A DNA stretch of 62,273 nucleotides from Burkholderiales bacterium. Lineage in GTDB: Bacteria > Pseudomonadota > Gammaproteobacteria > Burkholderiales > JAEUOS01. Positions 5,356 to 55,210 of this stretch are shown here, piece after piece (the first letter of the stretch is position 1; every line of letters begins with the position of its first letter). The notes beneath the pieces were generated by a model. The model was not told the DNA's origin, made no database searches, and saw nothing but the letters and a program-made list of their open reading frames with translations. Location of the stretch: the NCBI GenBank assembly GCA_947473125.1, contig CANJDH010000018.1:1-62273 (forward strand). The letters are read 5' to 3'. Both the position numbers and the translations under genes were made by a program.

Positions 5356-5759
5356 GGCACCGGCGAAATGCGAGTCGAAGCGTAGGGCGCCTCGGCTTCG
5401 CGCGCTGAATACGACCCCGGGGCGGGGCGGCGCCGGGCGCGGCGCCATGCCTCGCGCAGTTTCGCAACCAGGAGCGCGCGGTCGCCGAACACCTGGGCAT
5501 TGGTGATGCGCAACACGGTGATGCCCTGTGCTTCGAGCTCGATGGTCTTGCGCTGGTCCCTGCGCCAGCGAGACTGCGCACGGTGGTAACCGCCGTCGAC
5601 TTCGATCGCGAGCCGGACTGCGGGGAAATAAAAGTCGATGCGCCATTGGCCCACCGGCCACTCGCGCTTGAATTCACCGGCAAGAGCACCGCCGCCGAGC
5701 TCGTTGAGCAGCCGTTCGAGCGCGGCTTCGGCAGGGGTGGGCTCGGTGAACGGGTCCAC
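5076..5759 (-). CDS. DUF559 (endonuclease-like) protein with anomalous C-terminal extension
   Basis: The first 115 or so residues are a DUF559 domain, a very-short-patch-repair-like endonuclease fold: PTPAEAALERLLNELG, FKREWPVGQWRIDFYFP, LAIEVDGGYH (acidic centre), QGITVLRITNAQVF and a Arg-rich end. Translation starts with GTG three bases after the TRAP large-permease stop codon, so it is coupled to that operon. The usual family end falls near 5400, but no stop is met until 5076, so the last 90-odd codons are antisense to the RraA-family gene. The native stop was probably lost; the tail is doubtful. Confidence 0.6.
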   Translation of the reverse strand: MDPFTEPTPAEAALERLLNELGGGALAGEFKREWPVGQWRIDFYFPAVRLAIEVDGGYHRAQSRWRRDQRKTIELEAQGITVLRITNAQVFGDRALLVAKLREAWRRARRRPAPGSYSAREAEAPYASTRISPVPQKSQPFSLSALSTQLRSTLPLRMPFNTASSSLALAFAAFRTIGAMSTGTATTPSSSPTMMSPGHTTMPPTDTGTLISPGPFLYGPRCVTPRA

Positions 5760-5762
5760 GAC

Positions 5763-7079
5763 CTACTTGAGCACGCTCGGCAGCCACATCGCCAGCTGCG
5801 GGAACAGCACCAGCGCGACGAGCAGCACGCAATCGGCATACAAGAACGGCATCACGCCGCGGAAGATCTTTTGCAGCGGTATCTCCGGGTTCTGGCTTTG
5901 CACCACGAACACCGTCAGGCCCACCGGTGGGGAAATCAGGCCAACGGTGGACATCACGGTGACAAACACACCGAACCAGACCGGGTCGTAGCCGATGCCC
6001 TTGACCACCGGCAACAGCACCGGCACGGTGATCAGCAGGGTGCTCACTTCCTCAAGGAAGGTGCCGAGCAGCAGATACAGGGCGACGATCGCGAGGATCA
6101 CCATCCAGGGCGTGAGGCCCATCTCCTTGACCCACACGGTGAGCGTCAGCGGAAACTGCGTGAGCACGATCAGGCGCGAAAAGATGAACGCACCGATCAC
6201 GATGATGAACAGCATCGCGGTGGTCTGCACGGTCTCCAGGCCCGCTTCCCACAGACCGCGCAGCGTCAGCGTGCGCGTAACGAAACCGATGCCGATGGCG
6301 GCAAACGATGCTACAGCGGCCGCTTCAGTCGGGCTGAACCAGCCGGCGTAAATGCCGACCACCGCCAGCATGAACAGTAGCGCCAGCTTCCAGGTGCCGC
6401 TCAAGGCACGAATACGCTCGCGGAGCGGCAGGGCCGGCGACATCGGCATCAGGTGCGGTTTCAGGCGCGCCAGGATGGCGATGACCAGGATGTAACCGAT
6501 CGCGAGCAGGATGCCGGGGATCATCGCGGCGGCGAACAACTGCGATATCGACTCTTCGGCCACCAGCGAGTAGATCACCAGGATCAATGACGGCGGGATC
6601 AATATGCCGAGCGTGCCCGCCGACGCCACCGCGCCGGTGGCCAGTTCCATGTCGTAACCGTAGCGGCGCATTTCGGGGATCGCCACTTTCGAAAACGTTG
6701 CCGCGGTGGCGATCGACGAGCCGCAGATTGCCGCAAACGCCGCACACGAACCGATGGTCGCGGCGGCAAGTGCGCCGCGCACGCCGCTGAAAATCGCATT
6801 GGCCGCTTCAAACAGCTCGCGCGACATGTTGGCCCGTGAGGCCACTGCGCCCATGAAGATGAACAGCGGCACCACCGAGAACGAATATGCGGCCCCCGGG
6901 TTCGCGCCGGTCAGCTCATACGGCACCGATGCCAGGGTTTTGAAGGCGATTGCCCAGCCCTGCGCCCCGGCATAGCCCAACGTACCGCTGATGATCAGGG
7001 CGATGGCGATCGGCACGCGCAGCATCATCAACACCAGGAGGCCGATCACAGCCACGAGGCCGATGGCGCCGACGCTCAT
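5763..7079 (-). CDS. dctM: TRAP transporter large permease (DctM)
   Basis: A 438-residue, highly hydrophobic protein with about 12 membrane spans. It shows family features such as LRVPIAIALIISG near the start, SGSSIATAATFSKVAIPEM-like segment around residue 130 and PPVGLTVFVVQS near the C-terminus. DctM is the ion-coupled transport subunit that takes substrate from the periplasmic DctP. The start overlaps the small-permease stop by 4 bases. The DUF559 gene begins 3 bases after its stop. Confidence 0.95.
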   Translation of the reverse strand: MSVGAIGLVAVIGLLVLMMLRVPIAIALIISGTLGYAGAQGWAIAFKTLASVPYELTGANPGAAYSFSVVPLFIFMGAVASRANMSRELFEAANAIFSGVRGALAAATIGSCAAFAAICGSSIATAATFSKVAIPEMRRYGYDMELATGAVASAGTLGILIPPSLILVIYSLVAEESISQLFAAAMIPGILLAIGYILVIAILARLKPHLMPMSPALPLRERIRALSGTWKLALLFMLAVVGIYAGWFSPTEAAAVASFAAIGIGFVTRTLTLRGLWEAGLETVQTTAMLFIIVIGAFIFSRLIVLTQFPLTLTVWVKEMGLTPWMVILAIVALYLLLGTFLEEVSTLLITVPVLLPVVKGIGYDPVWFGVFVTVMSTVGLISPPVGLTVFVVQSQNPEIPLQKIFRGVMPFLYADCVLLVALVLFPQLAMWLPSVLK

Positions 7080-14829: not shown

Positions 14830-17460
<2,631 letters not shown>

Positions 17461-17497
17461 TCAATCACCGGCCCGCGTCGGGCGGTTCCCGGCGGTA

Positions 17498-18598
17498 TCA
17501 AATACGCATCGGCATCACGACATATTTGAAATCGGCGTTGTCGCCCCCGGTGATCAGGGCACTCGAGTTGGCATCGCCCAGCGATATCCGGATCTTGTCG
17601 ACCCTGAGGTGGTTGAGCACGTCAAGCAGGTAAGTGACATTGAAGCCGATGTCGATGACGTCCCCCTTGTAATCGATTTCTGCCTCTTCCTGCGCTTCTT
17701 CCTGGTCGGTGTTGGTACAGCTGATCTTGAGGCTATTGTCGCCGACCACGCAGCGCACGCCCTTGAATTTCTCGTTCGTCAGGATTGCGGCTCGCGTCAG
17801 GCAACCAATCAGTTCTTCCCGCGAAATTTCGAACGAATTCTTGTATCCGGAAGGAATGACCCGGTTGTAATCGGGAAATTTTCCCTCGACCAACTTTGAA
17901 ATCAACTCGACGTTGCCGAACTGGAAGCGCACCTGGTTCGAGGCGATGTCGACACGAATCGATTCATCGCTGTCTTCAAGCAGGCGCTCAAGTTCGATCA
18001 CCGTCTTGCGCGGAATGATGACTTCCTGTTTTTCCACGTCTCCGTCGATCGGCAGGGAAGCAAAGGCCAGGCGGTGGCCGTCGGTGGCGACCACCTTGAC
18101 GCTGCCTTTTTCGACGATCAGAAGCAGACCGTTGAGGTAATAACGGATATCCTGCTGCGCCATCGCGTATTGCACCAGGGCCAATAGGCTCTTGAGCGCT
18201 TTTTGACCCAGCGAGAATCCGGCCTTGAAGTCGGTGGCCTGGGCCACCGTCGGAAAATCTTCTGCTGCCAGCGTTTGCAGCGCAAAGCGCGAACGCCCCG
18301 ACTTGATATTTAGTTTTTTGTTGTTGAGTTCAAGCGAGACCTGGCCCGGCGGCAGGGCGCGCAGAATGTCGAGCAGCTTGCGCGCCGCTACCGTGGTTGC
18401 CGTGTCCTGCCCGGGGCCGCCTTCAGCCTTGGTCGATATCTGTACCTCGATATCGGTGGCCAGGAACGTGAGCTCATTGCCGGTCTTGCGAATCAGCAGA
18501 TTGGAAAGGATGGGTAAGGTATGCCGGCGTTCGACGATGCCGCTGACAGTCTGGATTGGTTTGAGCAGCGCATCACGTTCGGCGGATACTAATTGCAT
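17498..18598 (-). CDS. dnaN: DNA polymerase III subunit beta (sliding clamp)
   Basis: A 366-residue clamp protein matching the standard length. Seen are RDALLKPIQTVSGIVERRHT, GRSRFALQTLAAEDFP, YLNGLLLIVEKGSVKVVATD and the C-terminal YVVMPMRI, part of the hydrophobic pocket that binds partner proteins. AAGGAATAG precedes the start codon. It lies between dnaA and gyrB; the oriC candidate occupies its upstream gap. Confidence 0.98.
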   Translation of the reverse strand: MQLVSAERDALLKPIQTVSGIVERRHTLPILSNLLIRKTGNELTFLATDIEVQISTKAEGGPGQDTATTVAARKLLDILRALPPGQVSLELNNKKLNIKSGRSRFALQTLAAEDFPTVAQATDFKAGFSLGQKALKSLLALVQYAMAQQDIRYYLNGLLLIVEKGSVKVVATDGHRLAFASLPIDGDVEKQEVIIPRKTVIELERLLEDSDESIRVDIASNQVRFQFGNVELISKLVEGKFPDYNRVIPSGYKNSFEISREELIGCLTRAAILTNEKFKGVRCVVGDNSLKISCTNTDQEEAQEEAEIDYKGDVIDIGFNVTYLLDVLNHLRVDKIRISLGDANSSALITGGDNADFKYVVMPMRI

Positions 18599-18813
18599 GA
18601 TCTATTCCTTTATATAACTAGTAATAACTAATAGGTGCCTGTGGATACGGGGATGGATTTAAATATTGCTTGGTGATCAATGCCTTGCGTGTTGCTTCCC
18701 GGTCCGGAATGTTGTGGGTAACTGTTCCGGTGTTTGTGGACAAGTTTTGCGGCAACGCAGGATTCGGGGCTTATCCACAATCGATACACAGGCTGTACAT
18801 GATTTTTCCCGGC
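18599..18813. other. Candidate chromosomal replication origin (oriC)
   Basis: The 215-base dnaA-dnaN gap holds a perfect DnaA box TTATCCACA at 18771-18779. It also holds one-mismatch boxes in the opposite orientation at 18640-18648 (TGTGGATAC), 18713-18721 (TGTGGGTAA) and 18735-18743 (TGTGGACAA), and a weaker one at 18782-18790. At the dnaN side (about 18601-18635) is an AT-rich stretch with TAG/TAA triplets next to the 18640 box, as expected of an unwinding element. The dnaA-rpmH gap has only one box, so this gap is the better origin. Confidence 0.75.
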
Positions 18814-20298
18814 TTATCCCTTGATGATCTGGTCGAGTACGTGCAGTTCGTGATTCAGTTGCGTATCGGTCTTGCGGTTTTCGGTAATTTTTCGAACGGC
18901 GTGAAGCACAGTGGTGTGGTCACGTCCACCAAAAGATTCGCCGATTTCTGGCAGTGACAGTGAAGTGAGTTCCTTGGCAAAGTACATGGCGATCTGGCGC
19001 GGCTTGACCAGGTCAGCCGTGCGTTTTTTGGAAAACAATTCAGGCACTTTGACGCGATAGAAGTCGGCAACGGTTTTCTGGATGTTTTCGAGCGAGATGG
19101 CGCGGGTCTGGATGCGCAGTAGGTCGCGCAATGCATCGCGGGCGACTTCGAGAGTGATTTCGCGTGCGTGGAACTGCGAAAACGCGATCAATTTGCGCAG
19201 GGCACCTTCGAGTTCACGTACGTTTGAACGCAGGTGTTTGGCAATGAAGAAGGCAACGGTTTCGTCGAGCTCGATTCCCTGGCTTTCCGCCTTCTTGAGC
19301 AGGATCGCGACCCGCATTTCGAGTTCGGGCGGTTCGATCGCCACGGTCAAACCCCAGCCAAAGCGCGAGATCAGGCGGTCTTCTATACCTGGAATTTCGC
19401 GCGGGTAGGTGTCGCACGTGATGATCACCTGCTTGTGTGCTTCGATGAGCGCATTGAAAGCGTAGAAGAATTCTTCCTGCGTGCGGTTCTTGCCGTTGAA
19501 AAACTGGATGTCGTCGATGATCAGCAAATCGAGCGAGTGGTAGTAGCGCTTGAACTCGTCGAACGCTTTTTTCTGGTAGGCGCGTACGACATCGGTTACA
19601 TACTGTTCGGCGTGGATGTAACGAATGCGCGCAGTGGGACGCTGTTTGAACAGTTTGTTGCCGATTGCTTGTACCAGGTGGGTTTTGCCGAGTCCGACCC
19701 CGCCATACAGGAACAGCGGGTTGTACGAGGTGCCCGGATTTTCGGCCACCTGAATTGCTGCCGCGCGCGCCAGCTGGTTGGCTTTGCCGGTGACAAAACT
19801 GTCGAAGCTATGGTCGCGGTTGAGGCGTGTGCGCTCGAATACCGATGCCGATTCGATAGCACTGTGCGCTTCTGCGGCGGCGGCGGCGGGCTGCTGTGCC
19901 GGCGTCGAGGGGGGGGCGTCGTTGGGGCGGGGCGTGGATTTTTTTGCCGGCGCCGTGTAACTGATGGTTACAGCGACAGGCGCGCCCCAGTATTCGGTGG
20001 CGAGGGATTCAAGGCGCGTCAGGAACCGATCCTTGACCCACTGTTGCGCAAAGCGGTTTGGCGCCATCAACGAGATGGCCGGGGGGCCGTAGGCGTCTTC
20101 GGGCAAGGCCAGCGGTTTGATCCAGGTGTCAAACTGCTGCCGCGACAACTCTTTCGCAAACAACTCCGAGCAGTGTTGCCAGAACGCAATGGCTGATAAG
20201 GGTTCGGCCTGGACGCGCGCGGTGTCACGTTCGGATTGGGCTGTCGGCATCAGGGAGGGGCGAAGGAAATTCGTTGGTGATTCGGGTTTGCGCGCCAT
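18814..20298 (-). CDS. dnaA: Chromosomal replication initiator protein DnaA
   Basis: Initiator ATPase that opens oriC. The conserved N-terminal domain I starts at [20 protein letters not shown], followed by a Pro/Ala-rich linker. The AAA+ core follows: Walker [11 protein letters not shown], Walker [11 protein letters not shown], and the C-terminal DNA-binding signature [15 protein letters not shown]. Homologues start close to the FWQ motif; here about 30-45 extra residues precede it. ATG codons at 20361, 20298 and 20250 are all possible and none has a good ribosome-binding site; 20298 is a compromise. It is transcribed away from rpmH. Confidence 0.96.
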
Positions 20299-36658: not shown

Positions 36659-36967
36659 ATGATCCACGTAATTGCCGTCATCACCGCCAAACCCGGTCAG
36701 CGCGACACCATCCTGCAGCATTTCCGCGCCAACGCGGCGGCGGTGAGGGCCGAGGACGGCTGCGTCGAATACGGTGCCGCGGTGGATGCGGAACACGCGC
36801 CGCCGTTCCAGACCCCGTGGGGCCCTGACACCTTCGTCGTGATTGAAAAGTGGGCCAGCATGGATGCCCTCAAGGCGCACGCCGCCGCACCGCACATGGC
36901 CGCCTACGGCGCCCGCACCAAGGAGTTCATCGCCGCCCGTGTGATCCATATCATGCAGGGCGCCTGA
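36659..36967 (+). CDS. Putative quinol monooxygenase (ABM domain)
   Basis: A 102-residue antibiotic-biosynthesis-monooxygenase (ABM, YgiN-like) ferredoxin-fold protein. The pattern is MIHVIAVITAKPGQRDTILQ, DGCVEYGAAVD, FVVIEKWASMDALKAHAAAP and HMAAYG. Such proteins oxidise quinols or similar aromatics without cofactors. GAGGAGC precedes the ATG. It begins 23 bases after parB but is not a usual member of that operon; it marks the left edge of the accessory region before atpI. Confidence 0.85.
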   Translation: MIHVIAVITAKPGQRDTILQHFRANAAAVRAEDGCVEYGAAVDAEHAPPFQTPWGPDTFVVIEKWASMDALKAHAAAPHMAAYGARTKEFIAARVIHIMQGA

Positions 36968-37003: not shown

Positions 37004-37056
37004 GGTTCCCGGTGGCCGCGCGCAGCCCTTGAGGGGCTGACGCGAAACTTCTCGCG

Positions 37057-37233
37057 CTAATCGTGCGGCGTCATCCCGGTGTGCGCGCGAAACAGGCGGC
37101 GGAATGAGCTCATGTCGGCGTAGCCGACGCGGTCGACGATCCTTTCTGCCGCCAGGTTGCCGGTAGAAAGCAGCGACTTTGCCTCCTCGACTCGCGCCTT
37201 TTGCACATAGGCCAGCGGCGTCAAGTCAGTTGA
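37057..37233 (-). pseudogene. C-terminal remnant of an AraC-family transcriptional regulator
   Basis: Only the second half of the AraC DNA-binding domain is left: LTPLAYVQKARVEEAKSLLS, ERIVDRVGYADMSSFRRLF and RAHTGMTPHD, in the style of GlxA/FtrA regulators. Upstream of about 37233 the frame enters unrelated, AT-richer island sequence, so the gene was cut by an insertion or deletion. It also stops shortly after TPHD, before the usual tail. It cannot be functional. Confidence 0.8.
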
Positions 37234-37303
37234 TAAGAGGCAAGCTGATCCAACTGCGGGATTTGTTAGACAGACGTCTGACTTGGACGTACCACTGAAG
37301 TTG

Positions 37304-38839
37304 CTATCTCGCCGGTTCAACCCGGAGATTGTCCATAAACGACGCGCAATTGTTCGGCCACACTGGTTTTCCAGCGTCGTCAAACCAGCAAATGCCTATT
37401 TCACGATCATCGCATAAATATTCAGTTACCCAAGGTATTGAAATGGGCTTACCTGGCAGCACGAGGCAAAGCGAAATATGTTCGTCATTGATTACCGCCC
37501 TATACCTATAGCGATACTCGTAGAGTTGGCTCAGGCCTTTTCGAATTTGATCAAGTAAGCTATCGCCACCGCTTTTCATTTCGAAAATGAAAGACCCATC
37601 GTCCGGGATTTTTGCGAACAGGTCTACATGCTCGTTCTCTTTCGGACTCGCGCCAATTGAACGTAGCCAAGCATCCATTTTGTCCACAAGTTCCTTGTGC
37701 AACAAATTTCTGCGCTGTAGTTTGATTCGAGTTACCTCGGGGTCGGCCAATTCTCTCGTTCGGCTGTACGGCCCTATCCGTAGAGGTTCGACAGCGCGAT
37801 CGCGAAACTCGTAGCGCTCGGGGCGGAGTGGGGGCGCAGCAGTTAGATTTTCAATGGCACTCGGCGTGGGTGCTGAAATAGCCGAATCTTGCCCTAGGAC
37901 CTCCACGGTTTGCGCAGACAGGGTCATTACGGCATCAAAGTACTTACCCCAGCTACCGCTGCCAATAACGTCTTCCAAATCGGTGCCACGGCTACAACCG
38001 TCGAAATCGGCAAATTCACTGGAAAGTGCAGCCATTTCGCTAAGTTGGCGCCGCAACTGGTCTTTGTCTGCTCTGTTCACACCATCGCGAATCACTACGT
38101 GGCGATTTCGCAAAGCAAAAAACTGAGTGTGGCGGAGAATATGAAATCTACTTTCGAACACTGTTGGCGTTGGAAGCTCGCCATTGCGTATTTTGCGGAG
38201 AACGCGCACAACATTGGTTTTGGTCGGCAATGCCCTCGTGTTAACGGCTGGGGAATTCGCCAGAGCATAGATTTCCTCGAACGAAATTGACGCAGAAAGT
38301 GGATCGATGTTCCTTAGTTCTGCGTCAGCTAAGAGGCCGACTACGATCATTCTTATTGGCGAAAAGTGCATTCCCTGGCGAACAAAATCTAACGTTCGAT
38401 CCCGCGCGTTTGCTTGGATATTTAGCGTCTCTGTAAAGGGGGTGTATCTCGCTCCCATCGCGTTCGGGTATTGAAACAATACGAGCTGCAACCGGAGAAA
38501 TGAGGCGACGTCTGGCTCTTCGCAAAGTAAAAATCGTCTGGCCGTCTCGCTTACTCTTACCACCCAGCCGCGTACCGATTTTTGCAAATAGTAAAGCCCT
38601 AGATAGGCCGGATACGCGCTTATCTCATCTCTAAATTTTGATGCATCTCGTCCACTTGAAACTGCGTCGTGAGCAATGTAGGAGACACGGGGACTGATGG
38701 CTTGGAGTCGGTGTTCGAACGCGTCGCGATCAAAAAGTTGACCGTCAAATTCACCAAAAATCGCCGCTAACTCGGAAAGCTTTTCAGGCCATTCATCAGG
38801 GCTTGAATGGATTTTGTGGCTAAATAAATCGCGAATCAT
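37304..38839 (-). CDS. Putative type II restriction endonuclease (PD-(D/E)XK-like C-terminus)
   Basis: A 511-residue protein next to a DNA methyltransferase. The C-terminal third carries a PD-(D/E)XK-like nuclease pattern: an acidic strand in ENEHVDLFAKI (Asp), then FIFEMKSGGDS (E-x-K), then LLDQIRKGLSQLYEYRYRYR, a helix common in such nucleases. The N-terminal two-thirds (YLQKSVRGWVVRVSETARRF, QYPNAMGARYTPF) resembles no family I can name and may read the DNA target. It starts 17 bases after the methyltransferase stop; no good ribosome-binding site. Specificity unknown. Confidence 0.7.
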   Translation of the reverse strand: MIRDLFSHKIHSSPDEWPEKLSELAAIFGEFDGQLFDRDAFEHRLQAISPRVSYIAHDAVSSGRDASKFRDEISAYPAYLGLYYLQKSVRGWVVRVSETARRFLLCEEPDVASFLRLQLVLFQYPNAMGARYTPFTETLNIQANARDRTLDFVRQGMHFSPIRMIVVGLLADAELRNIDPLSASISFEEIYALANSPAVNTRALPTKTNVVRVLRKIRNGELPTPTVFESRFHILRHTQFFALRNRHVVIRDGVNRADKDQLRRQLSEMAALSSEFADFDGCSRGTDLEDVIGSGSWGKYFDAVMTLSAQTVEVLGQDSAISAPTPSAIENLTAAPPLRPERYEFRDRAVEPLRIGPYSRTRELADPEVTRIKLQRRNLLHKELVDKMDAWLRSIGASPKENEHVDLFAKIPDDGSFIFEMKSGGDSLLDQIRKGLSQLYEYRYRYRAVINDEHISLCLVLPGKPISIPWVTEYLCDDREIGICWFDDAGKPVWPNNCASFMDNLRVEPAR

Positions 38840-38856
38840 TGAATCTTGGTAAGTGG

Positions 38857-40020
38857 CTAACTACGCAAAAAATCTAGCTCAAGAATATTCACTAGTTCGT
38901 CGTAAGTCTTCTGAGATTTTGCGCCAAAAATGTGCTTTTTTATGTGCTCAGCAAGAATAGCAGCGAACAGAGGGGGGACTGCGTTTCCGACCTGACGGAT
39001 TACATGTCGTCCGGTTCCATGAAATTCCCACCAATCGGGAAAGGTTTGCATACGCGCCGATTCTCTAGGGGTCACTTCACGTGCTGTGTGGGGGTGCACG
39101 TGGCCTTTTCCTCCGCCTTTGTCCGAACCAACAATGATTGCAAAACTAGGCCGCTTGGGATCGAGCTTATTGATGCGCGTTTTTGGGTCCCGTTCGCCAA
39201 ACGCCAAGTCCCGATATCTATCGACTATCCTCTGACTATGCTCTCGCCCCAGATGGTTGGGTGGGCTGTGCGCATGACCCGGCTCCTTCAGTCCGCGCAA
39301 CGCTTCCCCAGCAGTTCGATAGGGTCTGCATGAAAACAGGGATTGTTTGCCATGGGTTGGTTCCATTGGAGGCACCGAAGTACCATTTTTTGCGCCAATG
39401 AAAAAAACTCTATCGCGAAATTGTGGAATTCCAAATTCAGCAACTTGATACCGATGCGCGGAGACCGTGTACCTTCCACCCAACGATAGTTCCTCAAGGA
39501 TTTGTCCATAGAGCTTGCCGCCATGGATAGACAGCAGGCCGGCAACGTTTTCAAAGACGAACGCTTTAGGTTCGACCTCGCGAATGATTCGAAGGTATTC
39601 CCAAACCAAATTGCCACGGGGATCTTCGAGACCTTTTCTTTGGCCAAATATCGAAAATGCTTGGCACGGGGGTCCGCCAATTACGATATCAATATTAGAA
39701 GCCACCAGATTGGCTGGACTAAGCAAATCCGTAGAACGAACTTTGGTTATGTCTGCTGCGAAAGAATGTGCGTGCTTGTAGAAGCGCTTCCTCCCGCTAT
39801 TTAGCATCAATGTGTGGCAGGAAAAAGCATCTATGTCGCTGGACGCGCCTATGCGAAAACCGGCTGCAGAAAACCCGAGATCAAGACCTCCGCCGCCAGA
39901 GAAGAGTGAAAGTGCGGTCAATGTGCGCGAGGGAGTTTCGCGCGCGTCTCGTCGGGGAGCAATGGAATCGCCAGTTTCCTGAGAGCCCTTTGTCTCCAAA
40001 ACCAATGTGTCGTATTTCAC
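38857..40020 (-). CDS. DNA (cytosine-5-)-methyltransferase
   Basis: A 387-residue C5-methyltransferase with motifs in standard order. Motif I is LSLFSGGGGLDLGFSAAGF, motif IV is GGPPCQAFSIFGQRKGL with the catalytic Cys, and motif VI is FVFENVAGLLS. QVAEFGIPQFRDRVFFIGAK is motif VIII, RESARMQTFPDWW is motif IX, and QVGNAVPPLFA is motif X. The target-recognition segment lies between VIII and IX and is short. It should protect host DNA against the neighbouring nuclease by methylating the same site. Confidence 0.95.
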   Translation of the reverse strand: MKYDTLVLETKGSQETGDSIAPRRDARETPSRTLTALSLFSGGGGLDLGFSAAGFRIGASSDIDAFSCHTLMLNSGRKRFYKHAHSFAADITKVRSTDLLSPANLVASNIDIVIGGPPCQAFSIFGQRKGLEDPRGNLVWEYLRIIREVEPKAFVFENVAGLLSIHGGKLYGQILEELSLGGRYTVSAHRYQVAEFGIPQFRDRVFFIGAKNGTSVPPMEPTHGKQSLFSCRPYRTAGEALRGLKEPGHAHSPPNHLGREHSQRIVDRYRDLAFGERDPKTRINKLDPKRPSFAIIVGSDKGGGKGHVHPHTAREVTPRESARMQTFPDWWEFHGTGRHVIRQVGNAVPPLFAAILAEHIKKHIFGAKSQKTYDELVNILELDFLRS

Positions 40021-40038
40021 GGAACCCCCAACAGATTT

Positions 40039-40239
40039 CTATCGCTGACTGAACAATGGGTATTGTTCAGCAAGATATTTCTCGGCAGCTTCACGTACTA
40101 CCCACGCTACGGAAACCTTTTTCTGCTCCGCCAATCGTTCTAAATCAGCATAAGTCGCAGACGGAAAGCTCACCGAGGCGCGCGCACTCTTAGGCGCCTT
40201 AACGCCTTTCGCAGATTTGACCTTCTTTGAAGTATTCAT
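40039..40239 (-). CDS. Small ribbon-helix-helix-like DNA-binding protein
   Basis: A 66-residue basic protein: a Lys/Ala-rich N-terminus (NTSKKVKSAKGVKAPKSA), a beta strand (ARASVSFPSATYADL) and two helices (ERLAEQKKVSVAWVVREAAEKYLAEQ). This is the CopG/MetJ-Arc layout of dimeric repressors. It is the first gene of the minus-strand unit, 18 bases before the methyltransferase. A role as controller of restriction-modification expression is inferred; classic C proteins are helix-turn-helix, so this would be another type. Confidence 0.7.
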   Translation of the reverse strand: MNTSKKVKSAKGVKAPKSARASVSFPSATYADLERLAEQKKVSVAWVVREAAEKYLAEQYPLFSQR

Positions 40240-40250
40240 TTATGTGCACC

Positions 40251-40301
40251 ACTTTACACCACAATGGTGAATATCTTACTGTGATTTCACAGACGTTACA
40301 A
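40251..40301 (-). promoter_or_regulatory. Promoter and operator-like repeats of the restriction-modification operon
   Basis: Read on the minus strand: TTGTAA (40296-40301), a 17-base spacer, TAAGAT (40273-40278). The spacer contains the palindrome TGTGAAATCACA (40280-40291). Just downstream, GTGGTG occurs twice (about 40251-40266), bracketing TAAA. Both sites suit a small dimeric repressor such as the ribbon-helix-helix protein made from this transcript. Confidence 0.5.
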
Positions 40302-40430
40302 GCATGCTGTGCCAATGTAATCGTGAAACAAGCCGCGAATTTAGCGATCGGCAGTGAGGCACACAGGCTAGCGATGGGGCGTAAGTGTCGTGCTCTGGTC
40401 TGATGTACTCTCCCAACCGCGACATCTTTC

Positions 40431-40444
40431 CTACCAACTGAGCT
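40431..40444 (-). other. tRNA D-arm-like 14-mer at the island edge
   Basis: On the minus strand AGCTCAGTTGGTAG equals the D-stem/D-loop of many tRNAs. The expected pairing strand (GAGC) and the rest of a cloverleaf are missing, so it is a fragment at best. Its position at the right end of the acquired region makes an old tRNA-associated integration possible. Confidence 0.3.
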
Positions 40445-40494
40445 CCGGCCGTCATCCTGTGAGGTGAACCCGGTGCACCCCAAGGCGCCACAGC

Positions 40495-41697
40495 ATGTCC
40501 TCTGCACTACTCGATGGGCTTACCGTGCTCGACTTCACCCGCGTGCTTGCGGGCCCCTATTGCACGCGCCTGATGGCCGACCTGGGCGCGCGCATCATCA
40601 AGGTCGAGCGCCCGGGCGACGGCGACGATACGCGCGGCTTCTACTACCAGCTCGAGGAAGGCCGCACCGACCAGAGCAGCTACTTCGTCCGCTTCAATGC
40701 CGGCAAGGAAAGCGTGGCGATCGACCTTGCACACCCGGAGGCGCGCGCGATTGCCCTTGACCTGGCGTGCAAGGCGGACGTAGTGATCGAGAATTTCGTG
40801 CCCGGCGTGATGGCGCGCCACGGGCTGGATTACGCCGCCGTCGCCGCAGTCAAGCCGGACATCGTCTATTGCTCGATCAGCGGCTATGGGCAAACCGGGC
40901 CCTTGCGCGACCGGCCGGCATTTGCCCACCTGGTCAACGCCGCCTCCGGTGCGATGGACCTGGACCGTCAGGGCGACCCGCAAGCGCGCGTCGCCTATTT
41001 GCAGTCGGCAGATGCATTGGCCGGCGTGCATGCGTTCGGCCTGGTGCTGGCTGCCGTACTGCGGCGCGAGCGCACCGGGGCCGGCGCTTACCTTGATGTG
41101 CCGATGCTGCAGTCGCTCTGGGGCGCGGAAGATCTGGGTATCGCTGCCGCGCTCAACAACGCGCCGGTGATCAAGGGGCCGCGCGTAGGCATGGTGATCC
41201 ACACCATCGGGGGGCGGCAGATCGCGGCGCAGTTCATCGGCTCCGGCCCCACCTGGGACCGCATGCTTGCGGCAATGGCGCAGGACAGTCCGGCGCGCGG
41301 TGAACGCTTCTCAACACCCGCAGGCCGGCGCGCGCACTGGCCCGAGCTGCATCAGCACATTTGCGACTGGCTCGATGGATTTGGGTCGGTCGATGCCGCT
41401 GTCACTGCCCTGACCGCCGCGCGCGTCCCGTGTGCGCCGGTGTTGACGATTGAAGAGGCGATGGCCCACCCGCACATGGCCGAGCGCGAGGCCTTCACGA
41501 CAGTGACCCATCCCACGCGCGGACAGGTTCGCGTCACGGCGGCGCCATTTCACGTGGATGCAAAACCGATTCCGGCGCGCGGCCCGGCACCGTATCGGGC
41601 CGGGGAAGACACGCGTGCCGTGCTGGCAGATGTGCTTGGTTATCCGGCCGAGCGCATAGCAGCGCTACTCAGGTCGGGTGTGATTGCTGCACCGTAA
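40495..41697 (+). CDS. CaiB/BaiF family CoA-transferase (class III)
   Basis: A 400-residue family III CoA-transferase. Seen are DGLTVLDFTRVLAGPYCTRLMADLG-type start, KVERPGDGDDTR, NAGKESVAIDLAHPEA and VVIENFVPGVMARHGLDY. The ISGYGQTGPLRDRPAFAHLV region carries the loop leading to the catalytic Asp (MDLDRQGDP). It moves CoA between acids, activating a carboxylate for degradation. It stands alone, transcribed toward the minus-strand Bug remnant. The acceptor acid is unknown. Confidence 0.9.
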   Translation: MSSALLDGLTVLDFTRVLAGPYCTRLMADLGARIIKVERPGDGDDTRGFYYQLEEGRTDQSSYFVRFNAGKESVAIDLAHPEARAIALDLACKADVVIENFVPGVMARHGLDYAAVAAVKPDIVYCSISGYGQTGPLRDRPAFAHLVNAASGAMDLDRQGDPQARVAYLQSADALAGVHAFGLVLAAVLRRERTGAGAYLDVPMLQSLWGAEDLGIAAALNNAPVIKGPRVGMVIHTIGGRQIAAQFIGSGPTWDRMLAAMAQDSPARGERFSTPAGRRAHWPELHQHICDWLDGFGSVDAAVTALTAARVPCAPVLTIEEAMAHPHMAEREAFTTVTHPTRGQVRVTAAPFHVDAKPIPARGPAPYRAGEDTRAVLADVLGYPAERIAALLRSGVIAAP

Positions 41698-52800: not shown

Positions 52801-53547
52801 ATGGCCCTGACCACCGCCCTGATCGAGGTTCTCAAGCGCGAACTCAAAAGCCGGGACATCACCTACGCCGACCTGGCCAGGAAGCTTGACCTGTCCGAGG
52901 CGAGCATCAAGCGCATGTTTTCGGCCAAGGATTTCATGCTGTCGCGCCTTGATGAAATTTGCGAATACGCAGGCATTGAGTTTGCCGACCTGGCGCGGGC
53001 TGTGGAGGCGCGCGACTCCTTGCTGATGCAGTTGACGCCCGAGCAGGAAAAGGAGCTGGCCAACGATGTCAAGCTGATGCTGGTGGCGGTGGCGGCGATC
53101 CATCACCTGACGTTCGAGCAGATCGTCCAGTCGTACCAATTTACCGAAGCGGAGCTGATCGGTCTGCTGGCGCGCCTCGACAAGCTCAAGATCGTGGAGT
53201 TGCAAGCGCACAACCGCATCAAGCCGTTGGTGGCAAAGGCATTTACCTGGTTGCCGCAGGGGCCGATCCAGATGTTTTTTTATGCCCAGGCACAGGCCGA
53301 CTTTTTCCGTTCGCGCTTTGACGGCGAAGGCGAGGCGCTGGTATTTGCGAGTGGCCGCCTGCCGCCGGCGGCCAGTGCGCAGCTGGCCGACCGTTTGCGC
53401 CGTACCGTCCAGGAGTTTCGCGATGCGCACCATGAAAACCTCAAGCTGCCTCTCGACAAACGTCCGGTAATGAGCATCCTTGTTGCGATGCGGCAGTGGG
53501 AGTTGGGGGCCTTTCGGGAGTTGCGGCGCAAATTGCCGAAAACCTGA
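52801..53547 (+). CDS. XRE-type helix-turn-helix regulator with C-terminal domain
   Basis: A 248-residue regulator. Residues about 22-46 form the Cro/CI-type helix-turn-helix (TYADLARKLDLSEASIKRMF). The rest is a helical domain rich in Leu and charged residues, with no known ligand motif seen. It ends 87 bases before atpI. Similar XRE proteins in betaproteobacteria often sit alone; whether it affects the atp operon is unknown. Confidence 0.85.
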   Translation: MALTTALIEVLKRELKSRDITYADLARKLDLSEASIKRMFSAKDFMLSRLDEICEYAGIEFADLARAVEARDSLLMQLTPEQEKELANDVKLMLVAVAAIHHLTFEQIVQSYQFTEAELIGLLARLDKLKIVELQAHNRIKPLVAKAFTWLPQGPIQMFFYAQAQADFFRSRFDGEGEALVFASGRLPPAASAQLADRLRRTVQEFRDAHHENLKLPLDKRPVMSILVAMRQWELGAFRELRRKLPKT

Positions 53548-53574
53548 GTCTTATATAAGACCAGGCAGTTGAGA

Positions 53575-53604
53575 TTGACCCTGTGCCCTTGATTTATATA
53601 TAAT
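53575..53604 (+). promoter_or_regulatory. Main promoter of the ATP synthase operon
   Basis: TTGACC (53575-53580), an 18-base spacer and a perfect TATAAT (53599-53604) lie 29 bases before the atpI start. AT-rich flanks support strong melting. It should drive atpI through atpC. Confidence 0.75.
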
Positions 53605-53633
53605 GCGGGGCTTTGCGGCAGCGGGAGCTTGAA

Positions 53634-54023
53634 GTGTGGCGGCAATTTCGCCCGATCTTCGGGTTTCAGGCACTGGCGACCGCAGTCATGGCGATGCTGG
53701 CGGGTGGGCTCGCGGGTAACCATGGCGCGGCATCGGCCGGGTTGGGTGGATTGGTGAGCATCATCGCGGGCTTCGGTTTTGCGCTGATGGTGGCCAAAAA
53801 CAAGACACGGACAGCAGGGGAAGTATTGCGGGATGCGTTTCGGGCCGAGGCGGTCAAGATTGCGCTTGGGTTTGGATTGCTCTGGCTGGTGTTTCGGGTG
53901 TATCAGGACGTGGTGGCAGTGGCGCTTGTTGGCGCATTTTGCGTGACCATCCTGATTTTTAGCATGGCGATTTTCGTGGGCGACCCGAATTCGTCGAAGC
54001 AGGTAACAGATAAAGAATCGTAG
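53634..54023 (+). CDS. atpI: ATP synthase subunit I (AtpI)
   Basis: A 129-residue membrane protein with four spans: IFGFQALATAVMAMLAGGLA, GLGGLVSIIAGFGFALMVAK, KIALGFGLLWLVFRVYQDVV and ALVGAFCVTILIFSMAIFVG. It helps assemble the c-ring and is the usual first gene of the operon. The start is GTG, with GGGAGC upstream; a start at 53613 is unsupported. Confidence 0.88.
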   Translation: MWRQFRPIFGFQALATAVMAMLAGGLAGNHGAASAGLGGLVSIIAGFGFALMVAKNKTRTAGEVLRDAFRAEAVKIALGFGLLWLVFRVYQDVVAVALVGAFCVTILIFSMAIFVGDPNSSKQVTDKES

Positions 54024-54038
54024 AGCGGGTTGAATGCC

Positions 54039-55210
<1,172 letters not shown>

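What the first reader, a model, noticed from the sequence alone, without database searches (positions are those of the whole stretch)
37057..40444. Restriction-modification island inserted beside a beheaded araC gene
AT-richer DNA carries a C5-methyltransferase, an unfamiliar endonuclease-like protein and a small regulator. The left end cuts an AraC gene to its last 55 codons and the right end shows a tRNA D-arm 14-mer. No integrase is present, so the mode of entry is open. The endonuclease N-terminal two-thirds match no family I recognise, so a new restriction type is possible.
Basis: partly seen in the sequence, partly recalled or inferred. Interest (0 to 1): 0.6.

Follow-up and report, generated by a model that had tools for sequence, protein, structure and literature searches.

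The report
Laterally acquired restriction-modification operon, BpuJI-like nuclease
A small foreign gene cluster that probably marks the bacterium's own DNA with methyl groups and cuts unmarked invading DNA; the cutting enzyme joins a known style of DNA-reading domain to a nuclease in a combination that the family libraries searched do not list, and relatives pair the same kind of reading part with a different cutting machine.

Summary
The island is real. A three-gene operon (RHH regulator, C5-cytosine methyltransferase M, 511-aa protein R; about 50% GC) sits in 62% GC DNA between abm and caiB, beside an AraC remnant. The tRNA-like 14-mer is genuine as a string but marks no tRNA, att site or repeat; the mode of entry stays open.

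In a low-confidence model R's first ~300 residues match the recognition domain of restriction enzyme BpuJI (Z about 10); its last ~140 carry a PD-(D/E)XK nuclease core (D406, E420-x-K422, Q438). No Pfam, NCBIfam or PADLOC model claims R at cut-off. M-R pairs recur in five other loci (two methanotroph MAGs, two cyanobacteria, one viral contig).

Best reading: an NTP-independent restriction-modification system that works like a Type IIS enzyme with one methyltransferase. The extra result is modularity: sister lineages keep methyltransferase plus reader but attach either such a nuclease or a McrB/LlaJI-type pair, with at least two changes on the methyltransferase tree. A 41-kb viral contig carries M (70% identical) with no R detected, perhaps counter-defence. 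Target and activity are untested. A new variant of a known kind, of moderate interest.

The parts
37036..37233 (-). AraC-family remnant: C-terminal ~60-66 codons, with an in-frame TAG at 37057-37059 close to the original C-terminus; the N-terminal part was not found on the right of the island
   Evidence: HTH_18/HTH_AraC hits; tblastn with ORFs from 4 loci, start of homology 37218-37233, end 37036-37045; best other match in 200 genomes of the order 53% identical
37304..38839 (-). R: putative restriction endonuclease, 511 aa, intact frame
   Evidence: homologues over the whole length in L002, L003 (broken), L004 (broken), L005, L038
37931..38800 (-). R residues ~14-303: predicted recognition domain with two winged-helix units (residues ~17-96 and ~161-250)
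   Evidence: AF2 model, low overall confidence, second unit pLDDT about 70-90 in its core; VIA-align to BpuJI recognition domain Z 9.9-10.2; Foldseek Nt.BspD6I E 4e-4; BpuJI_N below cut-off
37322..37741 (-). R residues ~367-506: PD-(D/E)XK nuclease domain, D406, E420-x-K422, Q438
   Evidence: Residues conserved in 8 of 8 sequences aligned; helix-strand-strand-helix-strand-helix-strand order in the model; XisH-family structures 2inb/2okf Z 7.1/6.8; hhalign to L006/L034 C-termini E 9e-18
38857..40020 (-). M: C5-cytosine DNA methyltransferase, 387 aa, GTG start, 17 bp upstream of R
   Evidence: PF00145 E 2.8e-63; M.HaeIII aligned over profile positions 35-362; GPPCQ invariant in 5 of 5
40039..40239 (-). 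RHH/CopG-type small regulator, first gene of the operon, 18 bp upstream of M
   Evidence: RHH_1 25.5 bits, cut-off 20.5; spacing
40279..40292 (.). Candidate operator: 14-base inverted repeat CTGTGA-AA-TCACAG, starting 53 nt before the RHH start codon (inference)
   Evidence: Scan of 121 bases upstream, no chance control run; no sigma-70-like promoter found
40257..40269 (.). Second candidate operator CACCA-N3-TGGTG (inference)
   Evidence: no chance control run
40431..40444 (-). 14-mer identical to the D-arm of the genome's tRNA-Thr and tRNA-Gly; no tRNA here

Best explanation
The operon is a horizontally acquired restriction-modification system of the NTP-independent kind. M methylates one cytosine in a short target (shown by family: it is a C5 methyltransferase; the target is unknown). 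R binds unmodified copies of that target through an N-terminal two-winged-helix recognition domain of the BpuJI/BspD6I style, and cuts DNA, probably near rather than inside the site, with a C-terminal PD-(D/E)XK nuclease domain that must pair with another copy to cut both strands (inferred from the architecture). The RHH protein most likely controls the operon from the inverted repeats just upstream, so that M is made before R (inferred). A single methyltransferase protects both strands either because the site is palindromic or because it is quasi-palindromic, as described for BbvI and MlyI. In related lineages a methyltransferase and recognition domain of the same kind are coupled to a McrB/LlaJI-type AAA-nuclease pair instead, so the recognition domain behaves as a portable specificity module.
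For: M family. M directly upstream of R in the window and in 5 of 5 other loci whose R match spans the length (L002, L003, L004, L005, L038). R fold: Foldseek ranks 1-8 all Nt.BspD6I, best E 4.3e-4; VIA-align's first four rows all BpuJI recognition domain, Z 9.9-10.2, 236-239 residues aligned, model 14-303, then Nt.BspD6I Z 7.7-7.9 over 17-511, then XisH-like proteins Z 7.1/6.8 on 395-502. PD-(D/E)XK residues conserved in 8 of 8. Weak, colinear BpuJI_N hits in R, L005, L002 and L007 (E 0.014, 0.014, 0.064, 0.0038); of four stand-alone specificity proteins in the sister group one (L039) passes the BpuJI_N and RE_AlwI cut-offs, the other three (L035, L040, L041) hit RE_AlwI below it. Swap: L007 and L038 are sisters in the M tree (98/97), M 62% and N-domain 50% identical, but carry McrB+LlaJI-type nuclease versus PD-(D/E)XK. 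Foreign origin. Type IIS layout and single-MTase precedents from PMC4081073 section 34.
Against: The R model is of low confidence (mean pLDDT 57, pTM 0.47, 7 alignment rows); rmsd to BpuJI is 7.4-7.5 A, Foldseek TM-scores to Nt.BspD6I are only 0.17-0.24, and the tool warns that Z under 8 may mean a common arrangement, which touches the BspD6I and XisH rows. FokI matches weakly (Z 4.0 and 3.8; Foldseek E 1.0 and 1.6). BpuJI_N is below its cut-off for R (15.1 against 25 bits) and gave no match for L038 at E <= 0.5. hhalign of the R N-domain with the stand-alone specificity proteins gives probability 34 only (E 4e-4). R is broken in L003 and L004, M in L003. Most Type IIS systems have two MTases. 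RHH has no counterpart in 8 of 8 related loci (best tblastn E 0.95). No promoter-like site (0 found, 3.3 expected in shuffles). No activity, target or methylation data.
Confidence: 0.74

Rival explanations
1. R is a strand-specific nickase, or needs an unlinked second nuclease subunit, like Nt.BspD6I, and is not a self-sufficient double-strand cutter.
For: Nt.BspD6I is the best Foldseek match of the whole chain and aligns over almost all of R by VIA-align.
Against: No second nuclease gene lies in the operon, and I saw no gene other than M and R shared by the 5 related loci, by reading their ORF and feature lists (L003 holds only 3.4 kb and L038 ends at R). BpuJI rows score higher in VIA-align.
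Confidence: 0.11
2. R recognises a plain palindrome as a homodimer and cuts inside it (Type IIP behaviour), the BpuJI-like domain notwithstanding; one C5 methyltransferase is then sufficient.
For: A single M in the window and next to R in the 5 related loci; the M profile aligns over most of its length with M.HaeIII, which methylates the palindrome GGCC (specificity recalled).
Against: Recognition and cleavage lie in separate domains with a long low-confidence linker (residues ~318-378), the Type IIS layout.
Confidence: 0.12
3. R is a modification-dependent (Type IV-like) nuclease and M is a neighbour by chance or a marking enzyme.
For: The same kind of N-domain is fused to a McrB-type AAA domain in L007; E. 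coli McrBC itself is methyl-specific.
Against: M-R linkage in the window and in 5 of 5 related loci; McrB-like systems with their own MTases are known as R-M systems for unmethylated sites (LlaJI).
Confidence: 0.06
4. The island is a decaying relic without activity.
For: The adjacent araC is a pseudogene; R is broken in L004 and L003; no promoter-like site found.
Against: All three genes in the window are open with short gaps of 17 and 18 bp, and the catalytic residues are conserved.
Confidence: 0.06

Closest known systems
BpuJI (recognition domain PF11564, PDB 2vla/5hnf)
   Same: N-terminal two-helix-turn-helix recognition domain (fold match Z ~10); separate C-terminal PD-(D/E)XK nuclease (BpuJI's nuclease part recalled)
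   Different: R is below the Pfam cut-off; recognition residues, target and MTase set unknown; R has one C5 MTase
Nt.BspD6I / AlwI family (PF09491)
   Same: Overall order, recognition domain then nuclease; sister-group specificity protein L039 matches RE_AlwI above cut-off
   Different: R itself has no RE_AlwI match; no evidence of nicking
LlaJI / BsuMI / LlaI McrBC-like R-M systems
   Same: Relatives of the R recognition domain are fused to a McrB-like AAA protein next to a LlaJI-type nuclease (L007), or, in the sister clade, encoded just before such a pair (L035, L039, L040, L041; 4 of 4 with AAA_5 and RE_LlaJI above cut-off)
   Different: The window operon has no AAA or McrC gene; cutting is predicted to be NTP-independent
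XisH-family PD-(D/E)XK proteins
   Same: Fold of the R C-terminal domain (Z 7.1/6.8); XisH is a listed PD-(D/E)XK member (PMC1189080)
   Different: The XisH-family structures are small proteins (128-129 residues); no sequence family match to R
Tolypothrix sp. PCC 7712 plasmid unnamed13 M-R pair (L005)
   Same: M 66%, R 62% identical, same order and close spacing
   Different: On a mobilizable plasmid, no RHH counterpart; R annotated 'hypothetical protein'

Membership tests
C5-cytosine DNA methyltransferase (PF00145) | Family score above curated cut-off and catalytic PCQ motif | tested here: met
   214.7 bits against 22; G-P-P-C-Q invariant in 5 of 5
BpuJI_N (PF11564) | Sequence score above the curated cut-off | tested here: not met
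   15.1 bits against 25; so not filed as a member
BpuJI-like recognition fold | Two HTH units arranged as in the BpuJI recognition domain | tested here: met
   VIA-align Z 9.9-10.2 over 236-239 residues, above all other rows; caveat: low-confidence model, rmsd 7.4-7.5 A
RE_AlwI (PF09491) | Sequence score above the curated cut-off | tested here: not met
   No match for R at E <= 1; in the sister group 1 of 4 passes (L039, 34.4 against 23.1; the others 18.0-21.1)
PD-(D/E)XK nuclease superfamily | Catalytic D ... E-x-K residues on a core of strands flanked by helices | tested here: met
   D406, E420, K422, Q438 in 8 of 8; element order; XisH structures. Pfam models of the superfamily: no hit for R, L038 PDDEXK_9 below cut-off, 21.5 against 25.5
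Type IIS restriction endonuclease | Separate N-terminal recognition and C-terminal cleavage domains | tested here: met
   Predicted domains; model of low confidence
Type IIS restriction endonuclease | Cleavage at a fixed distance outside a (usually asymmetric) site | not testable with these tools
   Needs a cleavage assay
Type IIS R-M system | Usually two MTases, or one acting on a quasi-palindrome | tested here: inconclusive
   One MTase; target unknown; precedent BbvI, MlyI
McrBC/LlaJI-type restriction | AAA/GTPase subunit and McrC-like nuclease | tested here: not met
   No AAA or RE_LlaJI match in R, M or RHH; no further long ORF between 37.2 and 40.5 kb except frames overlapping these genes
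Controller of R-M genes | Small DNA-binding protein that regulates the operon | tested here: inconclusive
   RHH fold family met and upstream inverted repeats exist; regulation untested; no RHH counterpart in 8 of 8 related loci
Integrative element at a tRNA gene | Integrase and duplicated att site | tested here: not met
   No integrase ORF seen in the island; longest exact repeat between the flank stretches 37150-37330 and 40230-40500 is 8 nt, as in shuffles (6-9 usual); no tRNA

The most novel reading that the evidence does not exclude
The methyltransferase plus the BpuJI/AlwI-like recognition domain form a self-contained specificity cassette that evolution plugs into two different cutting engines: an NTP-independent PD-(D/E)XK domain (window, L002, L005, L038; separately L034) or a McrB/LlaJI-type motor with its nuclease (L007 fused; L035, L039, L040, L041 as a stand-alone subunit). 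At least two changes are needed on the 13-row methyltransferase tree. If so, the 'unique' N-terminal part or extra ORF of some LlaJI/BsuMI-type systems is a Type IIS-like reader, and their targets could be read off from simple relatives such as this one.
Probability: 0.5. Interest if true: 0.55.

Novelty: new variant of a known kind. Interest (0 to 1): 0.42.

Why it matters
The R-type proteins seen in annotated records are labelled 'hypothetical' (L005, L007), and R is missed by Pfam, NCBIfam and PADLOC at cut-off, so this R-M kind is hard to see by routine defence annotation. The engine swap links simple restriction enzymes with GTP-driven restriction machines and offers a direct way to learn what the latter recognise: the same MTase lineage and reader occur with a simple nuclease that can be assayed easily. 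A viral contig carrying the methyltransferase with no R detected suggests that phages meet this system in nature (inference).

Tried and rejected
tRNA or att origin of the right edge: ARAGORN, Rfam, genome-wide 14-mer search, folding and a flank repeat test give only an isolated 14-nt match. The 5' stem GCCGG of tRNA-Thr also lies next to it with three bases missing (seen by eye), so a relic of a tRNA 5' end is possible, but nothing ties it to the island.

Empty site: the four same-family genomes were examined around parB (10, 7.1, 10 and 10 kb). parB matches in all four and nmt/ttt in three, but abm, the araC remnant, R, M, caiB and the M20 peptidase gene give no tblastn match there at E 1e-3; caiB's best hits elsewhere in those genomes are 36-43% identical. 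So no one-step empty site can be shown. The N-terminal part of araC was not found right of the island (40.2-40.7 kb), so insertion came with loss of DNA or was followed by it. No other genome of the window's genus was among those searched.

More relatives of R: viral scans with R, the L007 N-domain, alignment A3 and L005 R found none; E. coli genomes none, by DNA only; Pseudomonadota 1 of 398, the window's own. PDB sequence searches with R, A2 and the L007 N-domain gave only weak hits that I take as chance. The first AF2 model (6 rows) was poor; its Foldseek ranks 1-7 were Nt.BspD6I but none reached E 0.001. BpuJI_N in 398 Pseudomonadota genomes: only the window's own R at E <= 0.01, below cut-off.

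M target: not inferred. The best PDB relatives (3g7u, M.HaeIII) do not fix it.

In print: searches (search listings); passages of PMC1459862, PMC11779793, PMC9240713, PMC12839542, PMC10853773, PMC4081073 and PMC1189080; PMC1459862 section 5 and PMC4081073 section 34 read in full.


Full report
What is there. Between abm (36660-36967, +) and caiB (40495-41697, +) the window holds three minus-strand genes in operon order: a 66-aa RHH protein, the 387-aa methyltransferase M and the 511-aa protein R, with gaps of 18 and 17 bp. Their GC3 is 0.47-0.49, against 0.68-0.82 in the nine neighbouring genes measured. Left of R lies an AraC remnant: homology to long AraC ORFs covers about 37036-37233, with an in-frame stop at 37057-37059. 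The window is one whole contig (C18) of a draft genome (209 contigs, 97% complete) whose only family relatives in the search were four genomes of two other genera.

Limits and entry. GC falls between about 37.1 and 37.3 kb and rises again at about 40.3-40.4 kb. No integrase ORF (ORF list), no tRNA and no repeat between the flanks beyond chance was found. The D-arm 14-mer is real and equals that of tRNA-Thr and tRNA-Gly in the same genome, but the exact match extends no further. The four family genomes keep parB, but the 7-10 kb around it give no match to abm, the araC remnant, R, M or caiB, so the neighbourhood is variable and no clean empty site was found. R has no match in the other 59 of 60 close genomes nor in the other 397 of 398 Pseudomonadota.

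Relatives. A genome-contig scan with R gave three loci: L002 (record titled Methylumidiphilus), L003 (Methylococcaceae) and L004 (Nostoc), 59-61% identical. Plasmid tblastn gave L005 (Tolypothrix plasmid, mobilizable; 62%) and a C-terminal match L006 (Azospirillum). A viral scan with M returned the best 80 of 144 confirmed loci; of these 80, tblastn with R finds a homologue in one, L038 (33%, over the whole length), behind an M about 50% identical. In 5 of 5 loci whose R match spans the length, M lies directly upstream of R. R is broken in L003 and L004 and M is broken in L003, which may be decay or, in these MAGs, sequence error.

What R is. Pfam, NCBIfam, PADLOC and PHROGs give nothing above cut-off; BpuJI_N appears weakly. 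The same weak, colinear BpuJI_N signal appears in L005, L002 and L007 (E 0.014, 0.064, 0.0038), but not in L038. An AF2 model from seven rows (pLDDT 57, pTM 0.47) shows two winged-helix units at about 17-96 and 161-250 and an alpha/beta C-terminal domain. Foldseek ranks Nt.BspD6I in the first eight places, two below E 0.001, with low TM-scores of 0.17-0.24. VIA-align, which re-ranks Foldseek's own candidates and is thus no independent search, puts four BpuJI recognition-domain chains first (Z 9.9-10.2, rmsd 7.4-7.5, model residues 14-303), then Nt.BspD6I over nearly the whole chain (Z 7.7-7.9), then XisH-family proteins on 395-502 (Z 7.1, 6.8); the best row outside these is Z 5.1. The model is of low confidence, but sequence hints, fold and residue conservation point the same way: D406, E420, K422 and Q438 are kept in 8 of 8 C-terminal sequences. 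[quoted passage not shown]).

The engine swap. In phage NatCom_21982 (L007), M is followed by a 1026-aa protein whose first ~300 residues are homologous to the N-domain of R (30%, E 3e-41) and whose rest has an AAA_5 domain, followed by a LlaJI-family nuclease (RE_LlaJI, E 1.8e-52). Among the five N-domains compared, L038 has the one closest to L007 (50%), and its M is the closest of 12 (62%; sister in the tree, 98/97), yet it carries the PD-(D/E)XK C-terminus. A parallel case lies in the neighbouring M clade: L034 (Nostoc plasmid) has M and a 484-aa protein whose C-terminus matches that of R (tblastn E 4e-5; hhalign of A8 with A9, which holds L006 and L034, E 9e-18) and whose N-domain is 29-35% identical to stand-alone 292-304-aa proteins in L035, L039, L040 and L041. 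In 4 of 4 of these, two C5 methyltransferase genes precede that protein, and an AAA_5 gene and a RE_LlaJI gene follow it. One of the four, L039, passes the Pfam cut-offs of RE_AlwI and BpuJI_N. L034 groups with them in the M tree (97/95). The N-domains of the two clades are themselves only weakly comparable (hhalign E 4e-4, probability 34), so their common origin is likely but not shown. The tree has one long branch (L033, engine not examined), and the tool warns about it; the two groupings used here do not include it. The minimum of two engine changes was read off the tree by eye.

How it most likely works. M marks a cytosine in the target; R reads the unmarked target through its winged helices, and the tethered nuclease cuts nearby after pairing with a second copy. 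This is the Type IIS layout as reviewed in PMC4081073 section 34, which also lists systems with one MTase that see a quasi-palindrome. Shown here: the gene families, the linkage and the conserved putative catalytic residues; supported by a low-confidence model: the fold resemblance. Inferred: activity, target, cut position, dimerisation and the role of RHH. RHH has no counterpart in the eight related loci tested, so it may be a local addition; two inverted repeats just upstream of it are plausible operators, without a chance control.

Relation to known kinds. R works like BpuJI but is not filed as a member of PF11564, because the cut-off was tested and not met. The window operon is not a McrBC/LlaJI system, since no AAA or McrC gene is present. 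LlaJI uses two C5 MTases, a reader-GTPase subunit and a nuclease subunit on an asymmetric site, and LlaI and BsuMI cassettes have three restriction ORFs (PMC1459862, passages and section 5). The relatives found here suggest that part of that group uses a Type IIS-like reader.

Counter-defence. L037, a viral contig of 41 kb, carries an M 70% identical to the window's, the closest of the 12 compared. No R was found in the 12.7 kb held nor in the whole 41,336-base record (the record may be a fragment, and that search had no positive control of its own). A virus that methylates its own DNA at the same target would escape this system; this is inference.

Verdict. The finding is a real, laterally acquired R-M operon. 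The nuclease is unlisted by the family models searched but understandable, and the modular link to GTP-driven restriction is the part worth following up.

Noticed in passing
L037 (IMGVR_UViG_3300047471_000084) 5541-6755: Viral contig with a methyltransferase 70% identical to M and no R found in its 41 kb; perhaps self-protection of a phage against this R-M kind.
   Followed up: partly
L007 (phage NatCom_21982) 3861-9529: Phage-borne R-M system: M, N-domain of the R kind fused to a McrB-like AAA protein, and a LlaJI-type nuclease.
   Followed up: yes
L035, L039, L040, L041: Two C5 methyltransferases, a stand-alone ~300-aa AlwI/BpuJI-like specificity protein, an AAA_5 gene and a RE_LlaJI gene: a candidate reader subunit for BsuMI/LlaI-like cassettes.
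   Followed up: partly
L004 7108-8863: Next to the broken R of a Nostoc MAG lies a second likely R-M pair: HaeIII-type endonuclease (PF09556) and a convergent, overlapping D12-class adenine methyltransferase.
   Followed up: no
L034 6927-8381: 484-aa hypothetical protein on Nostoc plasmid pCENA543e, probably another unannotated restriction enzyme of this modular kind, beside a methyltransferase.
   Followed up: partly
L006 4194-5411: Azospirillum plasmid gene with the same PD-(D/E)XK C-terminus; its N-terminal part matched none of the loci compared. It follows a WYL-domain gene, with a large ATP-binding protein gene on the other strand: perhaps another defence island.
   Followed up: no
L005 2246-4135: A NO VEIN (DUF3883) protein with TPR repeats and a site-specific integrase lie near M-R on the Tolypothrix plasmid.
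   Followed up: no
window 17001-19000 and 53001-55000: Two further stretches with GC 0.54-0.59, below the window mean of 0.62.
   Followed up: no
window 37057-37059: The AraC remnant has a late in-frame stop in addition to its lost N-terminus, so it is decaying.
   Followed up: yes
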